Below are positions 1,729 to 13,438 of a DNA stretch of 35,977 bases, in pieces; position 1 is the stretch's first letter, and each line of letters starts with the position of its first letter. The notes beneath the pieces were generated by a model, which saw only the letters and a list, made by a program, of their open reading frames with translations, did no database searches and was not told the DNA's origin. Source of the DNA: Bacteroidia bacterium (lineage in GTDB: Bacteria; Bacteroidota; Bacteroidia; UKL13-3). The stretch lies in NCBI GenBank assembly GCA_021740845.1, contig JAIOYZ010000033.1, forward strand, positions 1 through 35,977, given 5' to 3'. The translations under genes were made by a program, and so were the position numbers.

Positions 1729-4722
1729 ATGATTGACAAAAACATCACTGCAATTATTGGAAAGGCCATTAGGGAGGGGAAATACCTAACTATTACCTAC
1801 AAAAATAAGAGTGGTGAAATTACCCCTTTTTGGATTAGCATTTTAGATATTAATGAACATGGAGAACTTTATGTAAACATGTTTAATGTTACCAAGGATG
1901 AACCACTTTTAAATAGAAAAATATTTATTGCAAGTATTCAGAATGCTGAAATTCTTAAATTTTCGCAGTATGATGTTTCGGAAAAATTAATAAAAAAGAT
2001 TGAGGAGGATACATCCCTTGAGATTTATGATTTTGATAAATATGATAATAATATTCTGAACTACTTTTTAGAATGTTATAAAGCCAATAATGACCCTTTT
2101 CTGCACAAGCTTCATGTGATACCCAATATCGATTTATCTGAATTGATAAATCATAACCCATATACACTTTCGGATGAACAGCAGAAGTATTTGATAAAGA
2201 ATATTTACAATAATGATTACAATAAATTCCATGATTACGAGCTTGCTTTAAGTGAGTTTTCTATAGAAATAGAAGGCAAAGGAAAATTTGTGGTTGCGTT
2301 TAGAAAATTGAGTTTTGATCCAATTGAAAAAACTCTGATAATGGGAGGCAAAACAAATTTTAATTCAAACTTCTATATTTCTGAAACCAAGCATTCACTG
2401 GCATATTATACTGATTTTAGTCCTGCCGATTTTGAAGCCCTCTATTTAAAGGACAAAATGGGTGCTATTGAAACAATAGAAAAGAATTTTAGAATAGGAG
2501 AATTGCCAAATACCTTGCCAGAGGTTGTTGTTTTAGGGTATTCGCAAATAAACATTTCGCCTATTTATGAAGAAATAAACAGTGCGCATGAAAGAAATGA
2601 GATGGAGATTCCTATGAAAGCATTCTTTCAAAATTCATCCTTGCTTGATAGAAAGAACAGGAAAGAACCTTATATTGTGTTGTATGATAATAATGTTAAT
2701 ATTGATCAACTGCGAACTATTTATAATACCTTAAAGTACCCTGTTACCTATGTGCAAGGTCCACCAGGCACAGGAAAAACGCAAACCATTCTAAATATTG
2801 TGGTTAATTGTTTGGCAAACAACAAAACCTTGCTTATTAGCTCTAACAACAATGTTCCAATTGATGGCATAAAGGACAAGTTGCATATTGGGGATTATAA
2901 TAGAAAAGAGATTCTTTTTCCAATTATAAGGCTTGGGAATAACAATTATACCATTGACGCTTTAAAGAAAATAAGGGAGCTTTATGAATTTGAAACGAAG
3001 GATGTTCCTAAGGAAAATCAATTGACTAATTTGAAAGAGAAGTCGAAAGAAAACAACAAAATTTTGCTTGATAAGCTGAAGAGTTATGAGGAAAGAGAAG
3101 ACTTAGTTCAAAATTTAGAATTCATAAACGGTGTTTTATCAAAAGGCAGTTACTATTTACTTGAACAAGAGAAAAGGAAGCTGGAGGGGAAAATTGAAAA
3201 TTATCCAGAAATTACAGACGATGATTTGAAGGGGATATTTGAGGTTATTAAAGGTAATCATAGTCTGCTTCAATATTTTTATTTTGAGTCGTTAAAGTAC
3301 GTAAAAAGGTTAAAAACCAAGGCTTATAGCGACCTGGTTGAAATATTATATATTGAAGATAAAGCGATACAGGTAAAGAATTTTAATAAATGGATAGGGA
3401 ATGATGAGAATTTAGAAAAGTTCACCAAGGTTTTTCCTATCGTTCTTACCACAAATATTTCTAGTCGGAACCTAGGTAGGAAATTTAAATTTGATTTGTT
3501 AGCCATTGATGAAGCTGGTCAGTGCGATATTGCCACCAGTTTAATCCCAATTTCAAAATGCCGAAACATGGTATTAATAGGCGATACCAATCAGCTAAAA
3601 CCAATTGTGGTATTTGAAGAAAGCAGAAATCAAAGATTGATGAACCAATTTGCCATTGAAGGGTTTTATGACTATTTCAATAACTCCATACTATCTGTTT
3701 ATAAGAATGTAGACAATATTTCAAGGGATATTTTACTCAGTTATCATTACCGCTGTGGCAAAAAAATCATCAATTATTCCAATATGAGATTTTATGAGAA
3801 TAAGTTGAATATTGATGCCATAAAGAATTTGGGAGAGGTTAAATTATTAAATGTAAACAATGTAAATAGCAAAGGTAAGAACTCGCAAATTGAGGAAGCA
3901 AAGGGCATTGTAGATTTTATTAAAGAAAATAAATTGACGGATGTTTTTATCATTACCCCATTTAGAAATCAGGAAGAAGTAATAAATCACTATTTAAGAG
4001 AGGCGAAAGATTTAAATGAAATTGATGGCTCGGTGAGCTGTGGAACCATACATAAGGTGCAGGGACAAGAAAATAAAACCATTATCATTTCTACAGCCAT
4101 TTCGAGGCAAACCACCACAAGAACTTACGATTGGATTAAAAATAATAGTCAGTTGATTAATGTTGGAGTTACACGCGCCAAAGAAAATTTAATTGTGGTA
4201 ACGGATAAAAAAGCAATAGATATATTGTCGAGGAAAGATGATGATTTGTATGCGCTGATTGATTATGTTGAAAAAAACGGGAGCACCCAAATATCGCAAA
4301 GCGCAGTAAATAAACTGACCATTGGTTTTTCTAATAATTCAAAGTTTGAAGATGAGTTTTATAAAACCATGCAACATTATTGTACGCTAAATGATGTTAG
4401 GTTTGATAGGAATGTTAAGGTTGCGACTGTATTTCCTGAGGAAAGAAATAATGTCCTAGTGAATAAAAAAGAGTTTGATGGAGTGCTTTATGAGAAGGGT
4501 ATTCCTAGGGTGGTATTTGAAATAAATGGAAGGGAGCATGCAAATGTTAAAAAAAGAATAGGTTCAGATATCATTAAAATGGAACTCTTAAAAAGCAAGG
4601 AAATTCAATTAATAGTAATACCCAATAATTATGTAAAGCACTATGAATTTATCAGAGAATTATTGATAAAATTCAAAAAAGGGGCATATCAAAAATCGCT
4701 TTTTGAGGAATATGATTCTTAG
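1729..4722 (+). CDS. WYL-like / DNA2-NAM7-type SF1 helicase / nuclease fusion
   Basis: This 997-aa protein has three parts. Residues ~15-75 (ITYKNKSGEITPFWISILDI ... RKIFIASIQNAEIL) resemble a WYL/Sm-like ligand-binding domain. Residues ~330-850 form an SF1B (UPF1/DNA2-like, AAA_11/AAA_12) helicase: Walker A GPPGTGKT at 344-351, Walker B DEAGQ at 594, GDTNQLKP (motif III), HYRC (IV), HKVQGQE at 775 (V), and VTRAKE at ~814 (VI). A ~200-residue insert rich in Lys/Glu follows Walker A. The C-terminus carries EFDGVL (D917) and FEINGREH (E931), matching a PD-(D/E)xK/DUF2726-like nuclease with Asn where Lys is usual. Such helicase-nuclease fusions are common in phage-defence regions, so a defence role is inferred, not shown. 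It stands alone with no obvious partner gene. The start ATG is the first in frame. Confidence 0.8.
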   Translation: MIDKNITAIIGKAIREGKYLTITYKNKSGEITPFWISILDINEHGELYVNMFNVTKDEPLLNRKIFIASIQNAEILKFSQYDVSEKLIKKIEEDTSLEIYDFDKYDNNILNYFLECYKANNDPFLHKLHVIPNIDLSELINHNPYTLSDEQQKYLIKNIYNNDYNKFHDYELALSEFSIEIEGKGKFVVAFRKLSFDPIEKTLIMGGKTNFNSNFYISETKHSLAYYTDFSPADFEALYLKDKMGAIETIEKNFRIGELPNTLPEVVVLGYSQINISPIYEEINSAHERNEMEIPMKAFFQNSSLLDRKNRKEPYIVLYDNNVNIDQLRTIYNTLKYPVTYVQGPPGTGKTQTILNIVVNCLANNKTLLISSNNNVPIDGIKDKLHIGDYNRKEILFPIIRLGNNNYTIDALKKIRELYEFETKDVPKENQLTNLKEKSKENNKILLDKLKSYEEREDLVQNLEFINGVLSKGSYYLLEQEKRKLEGKIENYPEITDDDLKGIFEVIKGNHSLLQYFYFESLKYVKRLKTKAYSDLVEILYIEDKAIQVKNFNKWIGNDENLEKFTKVFPIVLTTNISSRNLGRKFKFDLLAIDEAGQCDIATSLIPISKCRNMVLIGDTNQLKPIVVFEESRNQRLMNQFAIEGFYDYFNNSILSVYKNVDNISRDILLSYHYRCGKKIINYSNMRFYENKLNIDAIKNLGEVKLLNVNNVNSKGKNSQIEEAKGIVDFIKENKLTDVFIITPFRNQEEVINHYLREAKDLNEIDGSVSCGTIHKVQGQENKTIIISTAISRQTTTRTYDWIKNNSQLINVGVTRAKENLIVVTDKKAIDILSRKDDDLYALIDYVEKNGSTQISQSAVNKLTIGFSNNSKFEDEFYKTMQHYCTLNDVRFDRNVKVATVFPEERNNVLVNKKEFDGVLYEKGIPRVVFEINGREHANVKKRIGSDIIKMELLKSKEIQLIVIPNNYVKHYEFIRELLIKFKKGAYQKSLFEEYDS

Positions 4723-5132: not shown

Positions 5133-5186
5133 AAATTCCTAAAAGTTATCAAAAAATGGAAGTTTTAGGAATTTTAAATATCTTTG
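5133..5186 (+). promoter_or_regulatory. Inverted-repeat operator plus -7 box of ATPase gene 1
   Basis: A perfect 12-bp inverted repeat, AAATTCCTAAAA (5133-5144) and TTTTAGGAATTT (5163-5174), surrounds an 18-bp core GTTATCAAAAAATGGAAG. A Bacteroidota -7 box TATCTTTG (TAnnTTTG) follows at 5179-5186, only 4 bp before the ATG at 5191, so the leader must be extremely short. The same layout, with different outer arms and a similar core, precedes the paralogous gene at 12230. Autoregulation is inferred. Confidence 0.65.
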
Positions 5187-5190
5187 ATTT

Positions 5191-6405
5191 ATGCAAACAA
5201 TAGCTCGTAAACGTTATCTAAATACACTTAAAGTTCTTAAAGACAAGAACCTAATAAAGGTTGCCACTGGCGTAAGGCGCTGTGGTAAGTCAACTTTAAT
5301 GAGCCAGTTTCAAGACCTGTTACGCAAAGAAAACGATAAAGTATCTATTTTGGCAATCAATATGGATATGCCTGAATTTCGGTTTTTAGCAGAAAAAAGC
5401 TGGAAAGAGATTTACGATTACATCATCAAGCACCTCAAAAAAAACGTAAGCAACTATGTGTTTATAGACGAGGTGCAAAATGTTCCAGAATTTGAAAAAC
5501 TATTGGAAGGCCTTTACGTTCACCCCAACATAGACTTGTACGTTACTGGTTCAAACGCATTTTTATTATCAAGTGAATTGGCAACTTTGCTCACAGGTAG
5601 AGCTTATGAAATAAATGTATTGCCTTTTTCATTTGCTGAGTTTTTGGAGTTCACAGACAAACGCACTATTCCTGAACGTGCCTTTGCAGAATATGTTCAA
5701 ATAGGTGGTTTCCCTGAGGCTGTAAGACTTTCAGCAGACGGGAATCATTTTGCAAATGAATATTTGCAAATGGTTTTCAAAAATATATATGACAATGATA
5801 TTTCTAAACGATATACTATTTATGCTGAACAATCCTATATGGAGGTTGTAAACTTCTTAATCGATTCAATTGGCTCAAGTGTTTCAGCAGGAAATATTGC
5901 AAAAGTTTTGACGGCAAACAAAAAAAAAATAGACAATAAAACAGTGTCAAGGTACATTGGATCGTTGGCAGAAGCCTATTTGTTTTACAAAGTAGATCGC
6001 TACGATATTAGAGGCAAACAACATTTAGCAACGCAAGAAAAATACTATTTGGTGGATTTAGGTTTTCGGAACGCATTAATTGGAAAAGAATTAGCAAGTG
6101 ATGCTGGCCATATCCTTGAGAATATTATTTACCTGGAGCTAAAGCGCAGAAACAATCAAGTTTGGATAGGTAAAACTAATAATTTGGAAGTTGATTTTGT
6201 TGTTCGAAATAACGAAGGGTTTACACAATACATACAAGTTTCGCAATCATTACAAAACGCTAAGACATTAGAACGAGAATTAGCTCCCTTTAATAGTATT
6301 TCAGACCATCACGAGAAAATAATAATTACAATGGATTATGAAACGGGTTCATATAACGGAATCAAAAAAATAAATGCATTAGATTGGCTTACAATGGATA
6401 AATGA
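5191..6405 (+). CDS. AAA_14/DUF4143 ATPase (COG1373), paralogue 1
   Basis: The 404-aa protein belongs to the COG1373 ATPase family. The N-terminal AAA_14 domain has Walker A GVRRCGKST at residues 27-35 and Walker B FIDEVQN with D93/E94. The conserved TGSNAFLLSSELATLLTGR segment follows at about 117-135. A winged-helix-like middle leads to a C-terminal DUF4143 domain with a restriction-endonuclease-like core; NNLEVDFVV (E333, D335) is its recognisable motif. No membrane segment is present. The cellular role of this family is unknown; it is widespread, often multi-copy and common in accessory regions. A close paralogue of nearly equal length lies at 12230. Start chosen at the first ATG, directly after the -7 box. 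Confidence 0.85.
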   Translation: MQTIARKRYLNTLKVLKDKNLIKVATGVRRCGKSTLMSQFQDLLRKENDKVSILAINMDMPEFRFLAEKSWKEIYDYIIKHLKKNVSNYVFIDEVQNVPEFEKLLEGLYVHPNIDLYVTGSNAFLLSSELATLLTGRAYEINVLPFSFAEFLEFTDKRTIPERAFAEYVQIGGFPEAVRLSADGNHFANEYLQMVFKNIYDNDISKRYTIYAEQSYMEVVNFLIDSIGSSVSAGNIAKVLTANKKKIDNKTVSRYIGSLAEAYLFYKVDRYDIRGKQHLATQEKYYLVDLGFRNALIGKELASDAGHILENIIYLELKRRNNQVWIGKTNNLEVDFVVRNNEGFTQYIQVSQSLQNAKTLERELAPFNSISDHHEKIIITMDYETGSYNGIKKINALDWLTMDK

Positions 6406-6582
6406 TATTTTCTAAAACGTAGAATTCTTGCACTCCTTAAAATTTACTTTTGTTATTGGCCTGTGTTTCGCTTAAACCCAAAAGTGAAATTGCCCAACAA
6501 TACACTGAAAAATATCACATGAATGTAACTGGAATGACATTATGTTTAGAAGTTCCAGAAATAATAGATCTCATAAATAAAT

Positions 6583-6872
6583 ATGACCATGACCATTAAT
6601 CAAAAGTTTATCAAAACTAATTCTGATTCTGATATTGAATTTGGAGTTGATTCGAGATATCAATCGAAGGAAGAAAGAGTATTAGACGCTATTTTACTTA
6701 TGCAAGCTCGTTTGGATAGAATGAAGAATTTATCAAGGGAGCAGACTCTTCGGGCAAAACTATTACAACTAAAGTTGAGAATGGAAAATTACCTTAAGGA
6801 ACCAGTTTATGATAACCAGAAACACTTTTCTCGATTTTTGAAGCCTACGTGGATGTTATGAAGTCGAATTAA
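6583..6872 (+). pseudogene. Truncated small regulator-like gene
   Basis: A 92-codon frame starts MTMTINQKFIKTNSDSDIEF and contains a helical KEERVLDAILLMQARLDRMK stretch. From memory this matches the N-terminal half of Bacteroidota proteins of about 170-190 aa with an HTH-like C-terminal part. Near 6836-6840 a T run is one base short: restoring it changes the ending from FLKPTWML to FFEAYVDVMKSN before a stop at about 6872, closer to the family, but still far short. The gene is therefore frameshifted and truncated. A second frame (6519-6599) overlaps its start by 17 bp. Confidence 0.5.
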
Positions 6873-7176
6873 TAGGGAAGTAAGCTTCTGCTTGAATTAT
6901 ATTTAATTTGGGGATATGCATGCTTTGCAATTGAATGATTGGTTTACCATCAACAACCATTAACAGAAAGAAAAATGGTCGCGTTTGGTTTAATAAAAAA
7001 ATTCTACAAGAATTGATTCCACTTCAACGGCGCTTTGGTTCAGACCGAAAAAAAAGGATTAATAAATTTGACAATGTGTTAGCAATGATAAGTAAATACT
7101 TGCTGGTAGGTTTGTATGCTTAAGAAACCACTCATGCAACGAATAAACCACCTAATAGTCGCAAAAAGTGCAACGA
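6873..7176. repeat. Intergenic stretch with palindrome-family repeat
   Basis: Core GGTTCAGACC at 7037-7046 is preceded by GCGCTTT and followed by GAAAAAAAAGGATTA and TAAATACTTGCT, the tail also seen at 146. An open frame across it (6935-7123) has no family features and runs through the repeat, so no gene is called here. Confidence 0.6.
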
Positions 7177-7208
7177 TAAATTTGTATAAGCGGCGAAAAG
7201 GGCTTATA
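7177..7208 (+). promoter_or_regulatory. Putative Fic gene promoter and operator
   Basis: A TAAATTTG (TAnnTTTG) -7 box at 7177-7184 is immediately followed by an inverted repeat TATAAGC (7185-7191) / GCTTATA (7202-7208). This lies 22 bp before the chosen start at 7231. Use as an operator is inferred. Confidence 0.45.
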
Positions 7209-7230
7209 TTCGTCTTAAAATGTGCAGCGA

Positions 7231-8355
7231 ATGAGGGCTTTTATACATCAAAATGGCAATTGGCCAAATTTTACTTGGGATAATGATGAAATAGTTAATT
7301 TGTTGGCTGAGGCGAGAAATTTGCAGGGCAGATTTACTGGTAAAATGGAATCATTGGGATTTGATTTAAGGAATGAAGCCATGCTGGATACTTTGACGCT
7401 TGATGTTTTAAAATCGTCTGAAATAGAAGGAGAGTATTTAAATCCTGAGCAAGTTCGTTCTTCGGTAGCTCGTAGATTGGGAATGGAGATTGTGGGATTG
7501 GTTGAATCGGATAGAAATGTAGATGGTGTGGTGGAAATGATGGTGGATGCAACGCAAAATTGTTTTAACCGATTAAGCGCTGAAAGGCTTTTTGATTGGC
7601 ATGCTGCATTATTTCCAAGTGGACGAAGTGGGATGTACAAAATAACCGTTGCTGATTGGAGGAAGGATACTACCGGACCAATGCAAGTTGTTTCTGGTGC
7701 CATGGGAAAGGAAAAGGTGCATTTTGAAGCGCCTGATTCAATATTGGTAGAGAAGGAAATGAAGCAGTTTTTGGATTGGTTTAATTCAAATTCGAAAATT
7801 GATTTGGTTATAAAGGCAGCAATAGCTCATTTATGGTTTGTTACCATTCATCCATTTGAAGATGGAAATGGAAGGATAACGAGGGCATTGACAGATATGT
7901 TATTGGCTCAATCTGACAAAAGCAATCAGCGATTTTATAGCATGTCGGCACAAATACGCGTGCAAAGAAAAGAGTACTATGAAATGCTTGAAAAAACACA
8001 AAAGGGGAATCTTGATATTACAGAATGGATTCAATGGTTTTTAAATTGCTTAATAAATGCATTACATGCTACTGATTCTGTATTAATGAGCGTTTTATTT
8101 AAGGCAGATTTTTGGTTAAAACATTCGAAGCTTAGCATGAATGATAGGCAGGAAAAGCTTTTGAATAAATTATTGGATGGGTTTGATGGGAAATTAACTT
8201 CGTCTAAATGGGCAAGGATTGCTAAATGTTCAAAGGACACTGCGATAAGGGATATAAATGATTTGATAGAAAAAAATATCCTGCAAAAGGAATTGGCAGG
8301 TGGGCGAAGTACAAATTATGAATTGGTGGAATTAAGGAAGTTGCAGGAGGAATAA
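7231..8355 (+). CDS. Fic family AMP-transferase (DUF4172 N-terminus)
   Basis: The protein is about 374 aa. The N-terminus (WPNFTWDN ... LQGRFTGKMESLGF) matches the DUF4172 lead-in of cellular Fic proteins. The Fic core carries the full catalytic motif HPFEDGNGR with H207, which supports AMP transfer from ATP to a target hydroxyl side chain. An inhibitory helix motif (S/T)xxxE(G/N) is present N-terminal to the core as SSEIEG (S62, E66, G67), so this is a class II self-inhibited Fic enzyme and needs no separate antitoxin. The C-terminus (LTSSKWARIAKCSKDTAIRD ... GGRSTNYEL) is a winged helix. ATG at 7231 (MRAFIHQNG) is preferred over an in-frame GTG at 7222 because relatives begin close to this sequence. 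Targets are unknown. Confidence 0.88.
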   Translation: MRAFIHQNGNWPNFTWDNDEIVNLLAEARNLQGRFTGKMESLGFDLRNEAMLDTLTLDVLKSSEIEGEYLNPEQVRSSVARRLGMEIVGLVESDRNVDGVVEMMVDATQNCFNRLSAERLFDWHAALFPSGRSGMYKITVADWRKDTTGPMQVVSGAMGKEKVHFEAPDSILVEKEMKQFLDWFNSNSKIDLVIKAAIAHLWFVTIHPFEDGNGRITRALTDMLLAQSDKSNQRFYSMSAQIRVQRKEYYEMLEKTQKGNLDITEWIQWFLNCLINALHATDSVLMSVLFKADFWLKHSKLSMNDRQEKLLNKLLDGFDGKLTSSKWARIAKCSKDTAIRDINDLIEKNILQKELAGGRSTNYELVELRKLQEE

Positions 8356-8490
8356 AGTGAGTGAGGATAGAAGGGGTGGGGATGTTTTTTTGAATTTTTG
8401 TGGGCTTTGGGATGGGAATTGCTATTTTAGTGAGGTTTAATTTCCTTATGTTTACGTGGAATTTGCTTTTTCATATTTTTTAATTTTACA

Positions 8491-9327
8491 ATGAACTATA
8501 GGCTTTTAGCGCATCGCCAATTAAAGGGTTTAAGGGATTTGGTGCATGATATGTATGAAATTACCACGGACGCGAAGGGGCTTGAGTATAGCACTGCGCC
8601 TAATGGCATTATTGGTATTTCTGTTGTGGTGAAGGGGCAATCGAGCATTTTAATAAATGGGCAATGGCAAAAAATTCCGTTTGTTTCTATTTATGGATTG
8701 GCTAAGAGACCTGATATTATTAGGATTAGTGAGCATTTTAGGGAGATTGCGATTGGGTTTAAGCCTTATTTTTTGCAACTGCTTTTAAAGGATAGCATGG
8801 CAAATATTATAAGCTCTGGCAATGTGGATGCGAGTGATGTGTTTACTAAATTGGCTGTTGAAATTTTATCTGAGCAACTTGCATTGGCAAACAATGATTT
8901 TGAAATTATGTGTGCGGTTGAAGCTTTTATCATTCAGCAATTAAATGAGGCGAAAGTTGATAATCGCTTATTGGCAGCTATGAATTTGGTGTATAACGAG
9001 GGCCATACCAGGGTGGATGAGATTGCGAATAAAATTAACCTTTCGGGTACGAGTGTGAGGAATTTGTTTCATGAAGGAATTGGTCGCTCACCAAAGGACG
9101 TGATTACGATACTGCGCATTAACAAAATATTGAAAGTGAAACCAGAAGAGTTTTCTAGTTTAACGGAGTTGAGTTACCATTGTGGCTTTTTCGACCAAGC
9201 GCACTTTATTCATGAGTTTAAGATGACGATGGGAATGAGTCCGAGGCAATATTTTAATCATCCGAAATTAGCTTTCGATTTTTACAATTTTGGCAGATGG
9301 GAAGGGAATATTTTTGATGAAAATTAG
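8491..9327 (+). CDS. AraC family transcriptional regulator
   Basis: The 278-aa protein has an N-terminal DUF6597-like sensor region (GIIGISVVVKGQSSILINGQ ... FREIAIGFKPYFL) and a C-terminal AraC DNA-binding domain with two helix-turn-helix units, near residues 174-206 (RVDEIANKINLSGTSVRNLF) and 224-258 (LTELSYHCGFFDQAHFIHEF followed by GMSPRQYF). The GF-x-DQAHFxxxFK signature is typical. The serine hydrolase gene begins 5 bp after its stop, so the two are probably co-transcribed, and the hydrolase is the likely target. The ligand is unknown. Confidence 0.85.
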   Translation: MNYRLLAHRQLKGLRDLVHDMYEITTDAKGLEYSTAPNGIIGISVVVKGQSSILINGQWQKIPFVSIYGLAKRPDIIRISEHFREIAIGFKPYFLQLLLKDSMANIISSGNVDASDVFTKLAVEILSEQLALANNDFEIMCAVEAFIIQQLNEAKVDNRLLAAMNLVYNEGHTRVDEIANKINLSGTSVRNLFHEGIGRSPKDVITILRINKILKVKPEEFSSLTELSYHCGFFDQAHFIHEFKMTMGMSPRQYFNHPKLAFDFYNFGRWEGNIFDEN

Positions 9328-9332
9328 TAAAC

Positions 9333-10802
9333 ATGATAAAAATTTTCGCAGCAATTTCGCTATTATCTTTGTCCACCCTAGGATATTGTCAGACATACAA
9401 CTATAAGCAGCATATACAATCTGTTACAACTGTTGTTGATGGGATGAATCAACAAGATTATCATTTGATGCAAAAGCCTTGGGTGTTTTTGGGCAAGGTG
9501 ATTATATCGAATAATATGTTGCGCAAGGACTTTCAACCCTTTTCTACCAAATATGGTATTGCCGACATTGATACGGTAGTTTTTAGTTCTATATACAATG
9601 GTACGGCGCAATTAAAGTTTAAACAGTTTCCTGAAAAAAGTACTTATCTTACCTTTAACTTTAGTGAGAAAGGAAAGATAGAAGGATTAGGTTTTGGCTA
9701 TCCAATTTTCATTTATAAAAATAAAGGCATTTCAAGTGAACGGCATTTAACACTTGAAGAAAAAAGAAATAGAATAGATTCGATTTTTTTGAAATATGCC
9801 CATGCGAAGGCGCCCAAAGATTTTAGTGGATGTTTGATGGTGACGAAGGGGGATGAAATAGTGTATCAGGTGAATAAGGGCTATTCTGATTTTGAAAACA
9901 ATATACCCAATAATGATTCTTCAATCTTTTTGCTGGCATCGTGCACCAAACAATTTACGGCACTTGCCATACTGCAATTAAAGGAGAGAGGGAAGCTGAA
10001 ATTGGAGGATAAGGTGCAATCCTATTTGCCGGAATTTCCATATGATAAAATTACGATAGAACATTTACTTACACATACCTCTGGACTACCAGATTATTTT
10101 GAACTATTGAACAAGCATTGGGATAAAACGAAATTCGCCACCAATGGCGATGTGCTAGGTATCATAAACCAGCACAAACCAAAATTGCTATTTGAGGTAA
10201 ATGAGCATTTTGAATACAGCAATACAGGTTATGTTATGCTCTCTTTGTTGATTGAGAAAATCTCTGGAGAGTCATTTGGAGCCTATTTAAAGCAAAACAT
10301 TTTTGAACCAATAAAGATGCAGAATACTTATGTTTATCATAGGCGATATGAAGGAGATACTTTGAAAAATTATGCCAAGGGATATTTGTATTCCAGCGAA
10401 CAAAAGAAGTACCAGCTACCCGAAAGTTTTAAAACTTACCAATACACAAATTATATGGATAGAATAACGGGGGATGATGGGGTAAGTTCGACAATATATG
10501 ATTTAAAGATATGGAACGAGGCATTGAAAAAGCATGTTTTGATAAATAAGGCATCTACAGCGCTTGCCTATACCAGCCATAAGTTAAATGATGGATCTGA
10601 AACTGGCTATGGTTATGGTTTTATGTTGAAAAAGGGAGAAGGGATTGAGGATATTATTTATCATACAGGAGGATGGCCGGGGTATTCTACCATGATTTTA
10701 CGATTTGCGGAACGAGATGAGAGTATTGTTATTTTATCAAATAATGCTTTTGAGCGTTTCGACTTTTTGGTAGATGAAATATGTAAAGTGCTTTTGAAAT
10801 AA
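9333..10802 (+). CDS. Secreted beta-lactamase-family serine hydrolase
   Basis: The 489-aa product has a Sec signal peptide (MIKIFAAISLLSLSTLGYCQ). About 120 residues of unassigned N-terminal sequence precede a class C beta-lactamase/DD-peptidase-like domain with nucleophile motif SCTK (S203, K206), YSN (Y295), and HTGG (H444) as the third element. LLTHTSGLPDYF is the usual family segment after the nucleophile helix. It probably acts in the periplasm on an ester, amide or peptidoglycan-like substrate; sequence does not separate esterase from peptidase. It lacks a DUF3471 tail, unlike the remnant at 1275-1535. It follows the AraC gene by 5 bp. Confidence 0.85.
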   Translation: MIKIFAAISLLSLSTLGYCQTYNYKQHIQSVTTVVDGMNQQDYHLMQKPWVFLGKVIISNNMLRKDFQPFSTKYGIADIDTVVFSSIYNGTAQLKFKQFPEKSTYLTFNFSEKGKIEGLGFGYPIFIYKNKGISSERHLTLEEKRNRIDSIFLKYAHAKAPKDFSGCLMVTKGDEIVYQVNKGYSDFENNIPNNDSSIFLLASCTKQFTALAILQLKERGKLKLEDKVQSYLPEFPYDKITIEHLLTHTSGLPDYFELLNKHWDKTKFATNGDVLGIINQHKPKLLFEVNEHFEYSNTGYVMLSLLIEKISGESFGAYLKQNIFEPIKMQNTYVYHRRYEGDTLKNYAKGYLYSSEQKKYQLPESFKTYQYTNYMDRITGDDGVSSTIYDLKIWNEALKKHVLINKASTALAYTSHKLNDGSETGYGYGFMLKKGEGIEDIIYHTGGWPGYSTMILRFAERDESIVILSNNAFERFDFLVDEICKVLLK

Positions 10803-10830
10803 AGCAGTATTTGAAAGGATAAAGCTTGGA

Positions 10831-10947
10831 ATGGCAGAGGCACAATTGCATAAGGTGACCATGAAATTGATTGATAGTAATTTTGCTAGGGAAAGGGCAA
10901 AAAAAAACCTAAAAGGTTTGGTTATAGGTGTTTTGAAAAATAGGTAA
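10831..10947 (+). CDS. Short ORF, possible remnant
   Basis: A 38-codon frame starts MAEAQLHKVTMKLIDSNFAR and ends with a Lys-rich tail. Its LHKVTMKL matches the extreme C-terminus of the 13542-14162 product (ELHKVTIKLK), also at DNA level (TTGCATAAGGTGAC). It may be the surviving end of a second gene of that kind followed by unrelated codons. Coding status is doubtful. Confidence 0.25.
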   Translation: MAEAQLHKVTMKLIDSNFARERAKKNLKGLVIGVLKNR

Positions 10948-10989
10948 AAGGCGTCATTCTGGGCCAAATTTATGAGCTGTTAAATTGGC

Positions 10990-11006
10990 TTTGGTTCGGA
11001 CCGAAA
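10990..11006 (+). repeat. Palindrome-family site (single copy)
   Basis: TTTGGTTCGGACCGAAA carries the core at 10993-11002. The centre CGG replaces CAA, which makes this copy a more exact palindrome (GGTCCGAACC on the other strand). It lies between convergent genes. Confidence 0.55.
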
Positions 11007-11043
11007 TAAGAGGCATTTTATGAAGAGGCGCATATACTATGCG

Positions 11044-11914
11044 CTAGTTTTTAATTAGCTTATAGATTTGGTTATTGCTTTGGGATAGATTCTGAAGGAA
11101 GTAAATTGAGTTGGCTAAATTACTTAAATCAAATTTTTCTGAATTTTCGCCTGGATTTGAAAGGAGGGACTTTGATTGAATTTCATTACCGGCTAAATTG
11201 AATAGTTTAAGGGTAACTGCTTCTGTTTTGGTGTGCGTCCAGCTAATGGTAGTATTGCTTCTGCTTGGATTTGGGTAAATTTTTACGTTTTCTATGTTGG
11301 AAGTAAGGCTGTTCACGCCTGAAGCTATGGATGGCTTGGTTAAATCTAATACTGTACAACTAAAAGCACCTGATTTAAGCAGTATGCCTGAAGAGTCCAT
11401 GCCAAGAGAATCGCAGAAGGTGCTTGTGCACATGCTATCAATTATCTTTAAGCAAAGATGATGTGCCTTCACCAAAGTTCCATAAGTAAGATAAGGTAGC
11501 ATTTGAGCCATTGGTACTTTTAGAATTATTGCTAAAAGTTAACGTTAAACCACTTACCATTGTAGTAAATGATGCTTCCCATTGGTTTTGTGGAGTGTGT
11601 ACACTAACAATATCGTTTAAGGTTTTAATCCATCCAAAAGAATCGTTGATGGTTAGTTGTATTGCTTTCCATCCGCCACTGGTATATGTTTTAACAGGAT
11701 TTTTTTGCGTTGAAAAGGTTCCATCGCCAAAACTCCAGTAATACGACATCCTAGCAGGAAACCCGCTTGTAGTAGTTGAGTTGTTGACAAAAGTAACGGT
11801 AAGTCCGTTAATGGATGATGCTTGAAAGGATATTGTACATGCTGCATTTGCATGAGAAACAAATAATGTAGTTATGCATGAAAGCAATAACAAAGATTTA
11901 AGTAGATTTTTCAC
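11044..11914 (-). pseudogene. Frameshifted secreted PKD-domain protein with T9SS sorting domain
   Basis: Two overlapping minus-strand frames form one gene. The first (11438-11914) has a signal peptide (MKNLLKSLLLLSCITTLFVS, HANA) and two PKD-like repeats with WSFGDGTFS and LWNFGEGTSS, then runs into a stop. The second (11044-11511) resumes with LCLKIIDSMCTSTFCDS, the normal end of the second PKD repeat, and finishes with a type A T9SS sorting domain (VKIYPNPSRSNTTISW ... ANSIYFLQ ... IYKLIKN). The NPxHTYxxxGxY part expected between GEGTSS and LCLK is missing, so a deletion of roughly 13-15 codons that is not a multiple of three broke the gene. The intact parent would be exported and secreted or surface-attached. 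Confidence 0.75.
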
Positions 11915-12139
11915 ATATAGTTTATTTTTAACGAATATATCTTCTTTTGAGGAGAAGCGGTAACTAGCGCAAATTTAAGGGGATACAATTGCGGAAAACT
12001 TTTTGGGTGGATTTAATTTAATTGGAAGGGAAAATTTGGAATTGTGTGCATTGAGGGTCAAAGGCGCTTTGGTTCAGACCGGAATTGGAGGTGTGGAAGT
12101 AGGAAAGGCAAATATTTGATGAATAGGTTTTTATGTTTG
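11915..12139. repeat. Intergenic region with palindrome-family site
   Basis: It holds the core GGTTCAGACC at 12071-12080, preceded by GGCGCTTT as at 7037 and 15222, and shortly followed by AAATATTTGATGAATAGG. No gene was seen. Confidence 0.5.
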
Positions 12140-12194
12140 TTATTGACGAAAAGTGATAAAAATTGATTTTTCGTCAATAAGGTTTGTATATTTG
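12140..12194 (+). promoter_or_regulatory. Inverted-repeat operator plus -7 box of ATPase gene 2
   Basis: A perfect 13-bp inverted repeat TTATTGACGAAAA (12140-12152) / TTTTCGTCAATAA (12168-12180) surrounds the core GTGATAAAAATTGAT. A TATATTTG -7 box follows at 12187-12194, 6 bp after the right arm. The layout and core match those upstream of the paralogue at 5191, but the outer arms are unrelated. Confidence 0.7.
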
Positions 12195-12229: not shown

Positions 12230-13438
12230 ATGATAAGTCGCGAAACGTACCTAGAAAAGCTTCGACAACTCAAAGATCAAAATCTCATAAAAGTTGTAAC
12301 AGGCATTAGACGAAGTGGTAAATCCACGTTATTGGAAGCTTTCAAAAACGAGCTTATTGAAAGCGGCATTTCAAATAAAAATATTGTTTTCCTGAATTTT
12401 GAAGAACGTGAAAACTTGCATCTTACAGATTGGTCGACACTTTACGATGAAATCATAAAAAAACTTGGGAGCGACAAAAGGCAATATGTGTTTTTGGACG
12501 AAGTGCAGAATGTGAATGATTTTGAAAAGCTTGTTAACGGGTTGTTTGCCAAGAAAAATGTTGATTTGTATGTAACAGGATCAAACGCTTATTTGCTTTC
12601 AAGTGAATTGGCAACTTTGCTAACAGGGCGATATATTGCTATAAATGTGCAACCCTATTCGTTTACCGAATACGCATTGGCAAATAGAGATGAAAAAAGC
12701 ACCGATAAATTGTTTCGTCAATACCTTAACTCAAGCTCATTTCCTGAAGCTGTAACTTTAGCGAAAAGCAATGAAACACTGGCCAACGATTATTTACAAT
12801 CGATTTATGATACAGTTGTAATTAAGGATATTGCGCAACGTTATAAGCTTCGTAATCTACACAATTTGCATCGTGTAATTAGCTTTGTTTTTGATAGCGT
12901 TGGTTCTTACATTTCGCCCACAAACATAGCCTCTGCGCTCAACCAAAAATCAAAGAAAACTATATCACACAATACAATAATTAAGTATTTGGATTTTCTG
13001 AAAAACTCCTACATTATTTATCCTGCACCAAGATATGAAATTAAAGGCAAAGAATTGCTTACCACTAACCAAAAATATTATTTGGTGGATTTGGGTTTGA
13101 AAAATATTGCCACTTCCAATAAATATGATGCTGACTTAGGACATAAGCTGGAAAATGTAGTTTATTTTGAACTATTGAGACGTGGCGGGAAGATTTATGC
13201 AGGTAGAAACAACGATAAAGAAATTGATTTCGTTGTACAAAAACCAAATAACGAAAGAGCCTACTATCAAGTTGCTTTTACTGTTAATGATGAAAAAACT
13301 TTTGAGCGCGAAATTTCTGCATTTAGGAATTTGCCTGATAATTACCCTAGGTATCTGCTTACTCTTGACTATGACAATACGAACATTGAAGGTATACAAA
13401 AAATAAATGTAATAGACTGGCTTACAAAGGCTGAATGA
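12230..13438 (+). CDS. AAA_14/DUF4143 ATPase (COG1373), paralogue 2
   Basis: The 402-aa product is collinear with the protein at 5191-6405: Walker A GIRRSGKST at 25-33, Walker B FLDEVQN with D90/E91, then the almost identical DLYVTGSNAYLLSSELATLL segment and a C-terminal DUF4143 nuclease-like core with NDKEIDFVV (E331, D333). Divergence is greatest in the Walker A-B interval and in the DUF4143 part, which may set partner or target specificity (inference). Function of the family is unknown. It is monocistronic, behind its own inverted-repeat promoter. Confidence 0.85.
   Translation: MISRETYLEKLRQLKDQNLIKVVTGIRRSGKSTLLEAFKNELIESGISNKNIVFLNFEERENLHLTDWSTLYDEIIKKLGSDKRQYVFLDEVQNVNDFEKLVNGLFAKKNVDLYVTGSNAYLLSSELATLLTGRYIAINVQPYSFTEYALANRDEKSTDKLFRQYLNSSSFPEAVTLAKSNETLANDYLQSIYDTVVIKDIAQRYKLRNLHNLHRVISFVFDSVGSYISPTNIASALNQKSKKTISHNTIIKYLDFLKNSYIIYPAPRYEIKGKELLTTNQKYYLVDLGLKNIATSNKYDADLGHKLENVVYFELLRRGGKIYAGRNNDKEIDFVVQKPNNERAYYQVAFTVNDEKTFEREISAFRNLPDNYPRYLLTLDYDNTNIEGIQKINVIDWLTKAE

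What the first reader, a model, noticed from the sequence alone, without database searches (positions are those of the whole stretch)
5133..12194. Two paralogous ATPases behind inverted repeats with a conserved core and swapped arms
Before gene 5191 the arms are AAATTCCTAAAA/TTTTAGGAATTT around GTTATCAAAAAATGGAAG; before gene 12230 they are TTATTGACGAAAA/TTTTCGTCAATAA around GTGATAAAAATTGAT. The inner AAAA-GTkATmAAAAAwTkGA-TTTT part is shared; the outer 8-9 bp are unrelated. A TAnnTTTG box follows each right arm by 4-6 bp. Conserved core with variable palindromic arms is what one expects if each paralogue, or its partner, recognises its own operator, or if the repeats are the recombination ends of a family of exchangeable ATPase units. 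The role of COG1373 ATPases is unknown, so such a cis site is a useful handle.
Basis: seen in the sequence. Interest (0 to 1): 0.7.

Follow-up and report, generated by a model that had tools for sequence, protein, structure and literature searches.

The report
Promoter palindromes of DUF4143 ATPase genes
Many genes of a very common but uncharacterised bacterial ATPase family carry their own palindromic DNA tag on their promoter, and the tag appears to change together with the DNA-reading helix of the protein, which suggests that each protein binds and controls its own gene.

Summary
The two palindromes are real (12 and 13 bp perfect arms), each 4-6 bp before a TAnnTTTG box and an AAA_14-DUF4143 gene. 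In 286 collected DUF4143 upstream regions, strong inverted repeats (score >=12) occur in 56, against 5 of 197 AT-rich control promoters. In the window's subfamily the site is two 14-bp half-sites: 7 variable bases plus a conserved AAAACTT-like core. 73 of 193 upstreams have the core pair 11-12 bp apart; 120 do not. Chosen on the core alone, the 7 flanking bases pair at 64% (shuffles 29%) and fall to 34% at base 8. The site lies on the promoter, with no copy downstream (0 of 51); the 5191 site is unique in its genome. In the pooled 66 genes, adjacent residues 249 and 250 of the predicted recognition helix rank first of 404 columns for the two bases next to the core; held-out genes alone do not confirm this for 249. 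Best reading: each protein binds a private operator through its own wHTH; repression is inferred. PADLOC lists the family as phage-defence candidate PDC-S01.

The parts
5133..5174 (.). Palindrome (proposed operator) of gene 5191: half-sites AATTCCT-AAAAGTT (5134-5147) and AATTCCT-AAAACTT (5160-5173, minus strand), 12-bp spacer
   Evidence: (only place in the genome)
5179..5186 (+). TATCTTTG, Bacteroidota-type -7 box (TAnnTTTG), 4 bp after the palindrome
   Evidence: that the box is a promoter element is recalled knowledge
5191..6405 (+). AAA_14 + DUF4143 ATPase (404 aa), PADLOC PDC-S01
5935..5973 (+). Predicted recognition helix H3 of the wHTH (residues 249-261); N249 and K250 codons at 5935-5940
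12140..12180 (.). Palindrome (proposed operator) of gene 12230: half-sites TATTGAC-GAAAAGT (12141-12154) and TATTGAC-GAAAAAT (12166-12179, minus strand), 11-bp spacer in this register
   Evidence: the register with an 11-bp spacer was chosen afterwards, the script read it with gap 9
12187..12194 (+). TATATTTG, TAnnTTTG box, 6 bp after the palindrome
12230..13438 (+). AAA_14 + DUF4143 ATPase (402 aa), PADLOC PDC-S01
12968..12973 (+). Codons of H247 and N248, aligned to residues 249 and 250 of the 5191 protein

Best explanation
Each gene encodes a STAND-like AAA ATPase with a winged helix (wHTH) and a C-terminal domain that looks like the PD-(D/E)XK fold. The palindrome on its promoter is its own private operator. 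Shown by sequence: two inverted 14-bp half-sites (7 variable + 7 core), usually 11-12 bp apart, placed on the promoter, not repeated downstream, and with both arms changing together in evolution. Supported by co-variation, not proven: the start of the wHTH recognition helix (residues 249 and 250) reads the two variable bases next to the core. Inferred: a dimer or larger oligomer binds there, blocks RNA polymerase and represses its own gene, until a trigger (perhaps invading DNA or phage infection) changes the ATPase state; different operators keep paralogues in one genome from cross-regulating.
For: Strong inverted repeats: 56/286 vs 5/197 AT-rich controls at >=12, 36/286 vs 1/197 at >=14; shuffles 0.1% at >=12 (first 198 genes). 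Core-only selection: 73/193 core pairs (9.5% of shuffles, 4.8% of controls), flanks complementary 0.64 vs 0.29 and 0.31, falling to 0.34 at base 8. Symmetric double changes in 30 orthologue pairs: 18 in the variable part against 3.2 expected, maximum 10 in 500 permutations. Placement: TAnnTTTG starts 3-9 bp after the palindrome in 13 of the 20 genes that have a box (1.5 expected); Firmicutes -35 abuts or overlaps it in 10 of 14 genes with a strict promoter (2.9 expected). Gene-specific. wHTH in the AF2 model, pLDDT 93.6; residues 1-297 match 2fna (Z 17.5, 269 aligned, rmsd 3.6) and 2qen (Z 17.4, 269, 3.5). Pooled 66 genes: residue 249 ranks 1st of 404 columns for base V7, residue 250 1st for V6. 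In 36 'out' genes H/R/K249 go with C in 15 of 15, D249 with G in 2 of 2, N249 with T in 7 of 9. Minimal pair L114/L124, 85% identical: N249 to H with T to C. No conserved neighbour that could be another binder was found.
Against: No binding or expression data. The core pair is missing in 120 of 193 subfamily genes, including nearly all of L244-L262; of the viral-contig members 2 of 42 reach >=10. The residue code was read off the genes it describes. On 31 held-out genes residue 249 failed (accuracy 0.61 vs 0.58 permuted, P 0.28; rank 90 of 404 for V7) and 250 was weak (0.34 vs 0.21, P 0.044; rank 19 for V6). Acidic and amide residues at 250 fit G in only 7 of 11. A column test on 62 genes found no excess in the wHTH (5 of the top 25, 4.5 expected). 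The domain-level Mantel test was significant for all 66 (P 0.002, but some random column sets reached as high) and for the same-register 30, not for all 39 'out' (P 0.18) or 23 'in' genes (P 0.066). In independent pairs, V7/249 gave P 0.16 at >=40% and 0.059 at >=50% identity, and other columns did as well or better. In STAND proteins the winged helix often does not bind DNA (recalled).
Confidence: 0.75

Rival explanations
1. The palindromes are recombination or transposition ends of exchangeable ATPase cassettes.
For: Nucleotide homology between the window gene and orthologues in three other genomes starts at or inside the palindrome (5133 in L101, 5134 in L013, 5160 in L100) and stops at 6387-6389, near the stop codon; none of seven window neighbour proteins was found in those three loci.
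Against: An end element needs a partner at the other end; 0 of 51 genes have a half-site copy within 300 bp downstream. A horizontally transferred gene that keeps only its promoter gives the same homology limits.
Confidence: 0.05
2. The palindrome acts as RNA: a hairpin attenuator or riboregulator of the mRNA leader.
For: Perfect arms would form a hairpin.
Against: It lies upstream of the TAnnTTTG box (13 of 20 genes with a box) or on the -35 element (10 of 14 Firmicutes genes with a strict promoter), so it would not be transcribed from that promoter; the core is conserved in sequence.
Confidence: 0.05
3. A separate host regulator, not the ATPase, binds these sites.
For: Defence genes can be controlled in trans, for example by RptR (title and start of abstract only, PMC12255303).
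Against: Arms differ between paralogues of one genome, no neighbour gene family recurs in more than 6 of the 80 named loci, and the arm bases track the ATPase's own helix in pooled data.
Confidence: 0.12
4. Orc1/Cdc6-like origin boxes: the ATPase is an initiator-type protein and the repeats are iterons of a replication or maintenance site.
For: The ATPase domain resembles Orc1/Cdc6 (2qby_B Z 14.9, 188 aligned, rmsd 3.6); 14 of 51 genes have 3 or more half-site copies upstream.
Against: Several copies per genome (11 here); sites tied to promoter boxes.
Confidence: 0.03

Closest known systems
PDC-S01, phage-defence candidate of PADLOC (COG1373 / AAA_14-DUF4143)
   Same: Both window proteins match PDLC04787 over nearly their whole length (E 2.1e-140 and 2.6e-147).
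   Different: Three papers hold that name. Two I saw in passages, which count the system and in which I saw no operator or self-regulation (no 'palindrom', 'operator', 'autoregulat' or 'promoter' in PMC12988326); the third, PMC12733099, only in the listing.
Archaeal ATPases SSO1545 (2fna) and PABY2304 (2qen)
   Same: Same ATPase + winged-helix arrangement over residues 1-297 (Z 17.5 and 17.4); that they are STAND/MNS-type is recalled.
   Different: I did not look for operators of theirs; C-terminal domains not compared.
Autoregulators of defence loci such as BrxR/CapW (recalled) and RptR (title and start of abstract)
   Same: DNA-binding repressors of defence loci.
   Different: There the regulator is a separate dedicated protein (recalled); here the ATPase itself would be the regulator, with a different site for each paralogue.
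STAND immune ATPases: plant NLRs, EfAvs5
   Same: ATPase core plus winged helix (WRR4A 9qlv Z 16.4, 260 aligned, rmsd 4.1; EfAvs5 9jap Z 13.3, 254, 4.0).
   Different: No self-operator known to me (recalled).

Membership tests
AAA_14-DUF4143 (COG1373) ATPases | PF13173 and PF13635 above curated cut-offs | tested here: met
   115.6/65.5 bits and 115.0/73.3 bits against 27 and 28.1
PDC-S01 | Match to the PADLOC profile | tested here: met
PDC-S01 | Anti-phage activity | not testable with these tools
   validation pending for most PDCs according to PMC12988326 (passages)
STAND ATPase with wHTH | ATPase core followed by a three-helix winged domain | tested here: met
   model pLDDT 93.6 with H213-225, H233-242, H249-261, strands 265-272 and 277-287; 2fna/2qen
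PD-(D/E)XK nuclease | Fold | tested here: inconclusive
   C-terminal model alone (pLDDT 88.5): Card1 Z 8.7, VRR_NUC 8.2, EndoMS 8.0, Can2, McrC and restriction enzymes; Z near the middling range
PD-(D/E)XK nuclease | Catalytic acidic residues plus ExK motif | tested here: not met
   E310, E333 and D335 in 64 of 64, but ExK is Q349-x-(A/S/T/C) in 64 of 64 aligned window-clade proteins; the 9 proteins of other subfamilies in A2 have ExK
Autoregulatory operator | Gene-specific palindrome on the promoter | tested here: met
   73 of 193 clade members
Autoregulatory operator | Bound by the encoded protein and represses its transcription | not testable with these tools
   only indirect:
Mobile cassette with terminal inverted repeats | Related site at both ends | tested here: not met
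   0 of 51 downstream within 300 bp

The most novel reading that the evidence does not exclude
PDC-S01 is a huge class of one-gene STAND immune ATPases that sit on their own promoters. A simple recognition-helix code (residues 249 and 250 reading the two bases next to a fixed core) diversifies so that every paralogue has an insulated operator, and release from that operator on infection is the immune switch. In the window's clade the nuclease motif is altered, so DNA binding and assembly, rather than cutting, may be the output.
Probability: 0.3. Interest if true: 0.9.

Novelty: new variant of a known kind. Interest (0 to 1): 0.75.

Why it matters
PDC-S01 is reported as the fourth most common defence system across prokaryotes (29,494 in bacteria, 9,986 in archaea), with validation pending for most such candidates (PMC12988326, passages), and as the most frequent individual locus in a rumen survey (PMC13356809, passages). 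I found no paper that says what these proteins bind (searches named under Tried and rejected). A conserved, gene-specific site on their own promoters gives a concrete DNA ligand, a reporter for what triggers them, and a testable amino-acid-to-base code.

Tried and rejected
Pattern search used a wrong right arm and says nothing; done correctly. Column-wise mutual information over 62 genes with mixed register (four rows L253, L324, L327, L330 dropped) showed no wHTH excess. Domain-level Mantel: wHTH partial r 0.113, P 0.002, on 66 of 75 genes after removing those 85% or more identical, while the best of 1,000 random column sets from outside reached 0.119; r 0.21, P 0.003 in the same-register group n=30 (17 of 1,000 random sets as high), P 0.18 for all 'out' n=39, P 0.066 for 'in' n=23. 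The held-out code test failed for residue 249.

Literature (PMC open-access library, no bioRxiv): no listed paper held both 'DUF4143' and 'inverted repeat'; one paper holds 'DUF4143', in which a Thermus AAA_14-DUF4143 gene rises 6.6-fold with a plasmid only when Argonaute is present (passages); seven hold 'COG1373' (listing only, not opened); three hold 'PDC-S01'. The original PDC paper is not in that library as far as I saw and was not read.

VIA-align and Foldseek lists cover only top Foldseek candidates; absences there mean nothing. The generality claim is limited: 120 of 193 clade members lack the core pair.
Full report
Observation. The two inverted repeats exist as described: 5133-5174 and 12140-12180, followed after 4 and 6 bp by a TAnnTTTG box. 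In the whole window four places have perfect arms of 12 bp or more with a loop of 3-20; 20 shuffles gave 0-2 each. Both genes are AAA_14-DUF4143 and 43% identical.

Own genome. It holds 11 DUF4143 genes. By eye 9 of 11 carry a dyad or tandem dyads just before the start, for example a 21-bp perfect palindrome (L001), TTGACGGAAAT repeats (L006) and TTGCAY..RTGCA repeats (L011); L003 and L007 show none that is clear. By the score cut-off >=10 it is 5 of 11. The sequences differ from gene to gene.

Generality. From genomes of the family and phylum, named contigs and viral contigs I collected 286 unique upstream regions, 193 of the window's clade (W) and 93 of other subfamilies (O). Best inverted repeat in the last 120 bp: >=10 in 92, >=12 in 56, >=14 in 36 of 286; 197 AT-rich control promoters (GC <=0.36, from the first 233 loci) 13, 5 and 1; all 479 controls 15, 6 and 1. 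In the first set of 198 genes, 990 shuffles reached >=12 in 0.1%. W and O are alike (19.7% and 19.4% at >=12). Viral-contig members score low (2 of 42 at >=10), and the 28 genes of the phylum search reached >=10 in 29% but >=12 in 4%.

Site anatomy. In the W clade I chose sites only by a pair of AAAACTT-like cores, at least 11 of 14 matches, 11-12 bp apart: 73 of 193, against 184 of 1,930 shuffles, 23 of 479 controls and 9 of 93 O genes. The 7 bases outside each core are complementary at 0.64 (shuffles 0.29, controls 0.31); bases 8-16 are at 0.31-0.41. The three bases next to the core use all four pair types. So the half-site is 7 variable plus 7 core. Several Firmicutes have the reverse order, core outside, with gap 0-2. 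With the spacing left free, the best-scoring 'out' pairs mostly still have 11-12 bp, some 9, 14, 16 or 18.

Both arms change together. In 30 orthologue pairs (each gene used once, chosen on the core), 18 positions of the variable part changed identically in both arms (25 with the core) and 100 variable-part positions changed otherwise; right arms permuted between pairs gave 3.2 on average, at most 10 in 500.

Place. Of 37 high-scoring 'out' genes, 20 have a TAnnTTTG box in 140 bp, and in 13 of these it starts 3-9 bp after the palindrome (random placement 1.5, maximum 7 in 2,000). In 14 Firmicutes genes with a strict promoter the -35 lies within -14..+8 of the palindrome's end in 10 (2.9 expected); a looser scan gave 16 of 20 without a chance control. 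In 51 genes the half-site (<=2 mismatches) occurs 2.16 times per 300 bp upstream, which includes the copies that define it, 0 downstream and 0.007 per 300 bp of far flank. The 5191 palindrome occurs once in the 4.09-Mb genome. The exact 11-mer of the 12230 site occurs at 10 places, only two of them close together: its own palindrome.

Protein. The 5191 model (64-row alignment) has pLDDT 93.6 with a wHTH at 213-287. Residues 1-297 match the archaeal ATPases 2fna and 2qen (Z 17.5 and 17.4, 269 aligned), then plant NLRs, CED-4, Orc1/Cdc6 and EfAvs5 (Foldseek list). The C-terminal domain folded alone is nearest to Card1, AF1548, VRR_NUC, EndoMS, Can2, McrC and restriction enzymes (Z 6-9). E310, E333 and D335 are kept in 64 of 64 W proteins, but ExK is QxA/S/T/C in all 64; the 9 other-subfamily proteins in A2 have ExK.

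Which residues read the arm. Domain-level tests lean to the wHTH but are uneven and one column test was negative. In 36 'out' genes with gap 10-12 residue 249, first of the recognition helix, goes with the base next to the core: H/R/K with C 15 of 15, N with T 7 of 9, D with G 2 of 2, other residues with A in 8 of 10. Residue 250 goes with the next base: K with C 8 of 9, H with C 3 of 3, S/T/A with T 10 of 11, D/E/N/Q with G 7 of 11. On the complementary strand this resembles the usual chemistry (basic-G, Asn-A, acidic-C, hydrophobic-T; recalled). Over 404 columns and the pooled 66 genes, 249 ranks first for V7 and 250 first for V6; in the 35 'out' genes they rank 1 and 2; in the 31 held-out genes alone 90 and 19. 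The table was read off the data, so its 0.90 and 0.84 fit is descriptive; held-out accuracy was 0.61 vs 0.58 permuted (P 0.28) and 0.34 vs 0.21 (P 0.044). In 24 pairs above 50% identity, each gene used once, V6 changed in 6 and residue 250 in all 6 (P 0.0034); V7 changed in 3 and 249 in all 3 (P 0.059); at >=40% identity V7/249 gave P 0.16; a few other columns do as well or better in so small a set. L114 and L124, 85% identical, differ N249/H and T/C. The window's 5191 fits (N-T, K-C; it is one of the genes the table came from). 12230 fits residue 249 (H-C) if read in the register that gives an 11-bp spacing, a choice made afterwards; in the script's register (gap 9) it did not fit.

Context. 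Among 490 neighbour ORFs of the 80 named loci no family recurs in more than 6 loci; three loci lie beside apparent type I restriction genes, by my reading of the sequences, not by a family search. Homology with orthologues in three other genomes starts at or inside the palindrome and ends near the stop. PADLOC calls both proteins PDC-S01; surveys count tens of thousands and state that validation is pending for most such candidates.

Verdict. A private self-operator is the best reading (0.75). Autorepression, trigger and defence role are inferred.

Noticed in passing
window 7222-8355: Fic/DUF4172 gene between the two ATPases matches PADLOC SoFic (E 6.5e-45), so the window holds three defence-listed genes within 9 kb.
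   Followed up: no
window 1729-4722: SF1 helicase (AAA_11/AAA_12) with partial matches to Mokosh MkoC/MkoA models.
   Followed up: no
L135, L146, L161, L119: DUF4143 loci L135, L146 and L161 share a large ORF that looks like a type I restriction subunit; L119, L135 and L146 share one that looks like a specificity subunit (by my reading).
   Followed up: partly
L006, L026, L031, L038, L058, L061: Other DUF4143 subfamilies have tandem arrays of about three palindromic repeats of roughly 30 bp before the gene, iteron-like.
   Followed up: partly
G050:C20:61403-61603 (L052): A 73-aa open frame 81% identical to the C-terminus of the 12230 protein, apparently a remnant of a close relative.
   Followed up: no
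window-clade DUF4143 domain: ExK replaced by Q-x-A/S/T/C in all 64 aligned proteins, while the 9 proteins of other subfamilies examined keep ExK.
   Followed up: yes
L010, L014, L015, L104, L106, L107, L110, L111, L113, L124, L264, L265: The TAnnTTTG box starts 12 bp before the ATG in these 12 genes, which suggests near-leaderless transcripts.
   Followed up: partly
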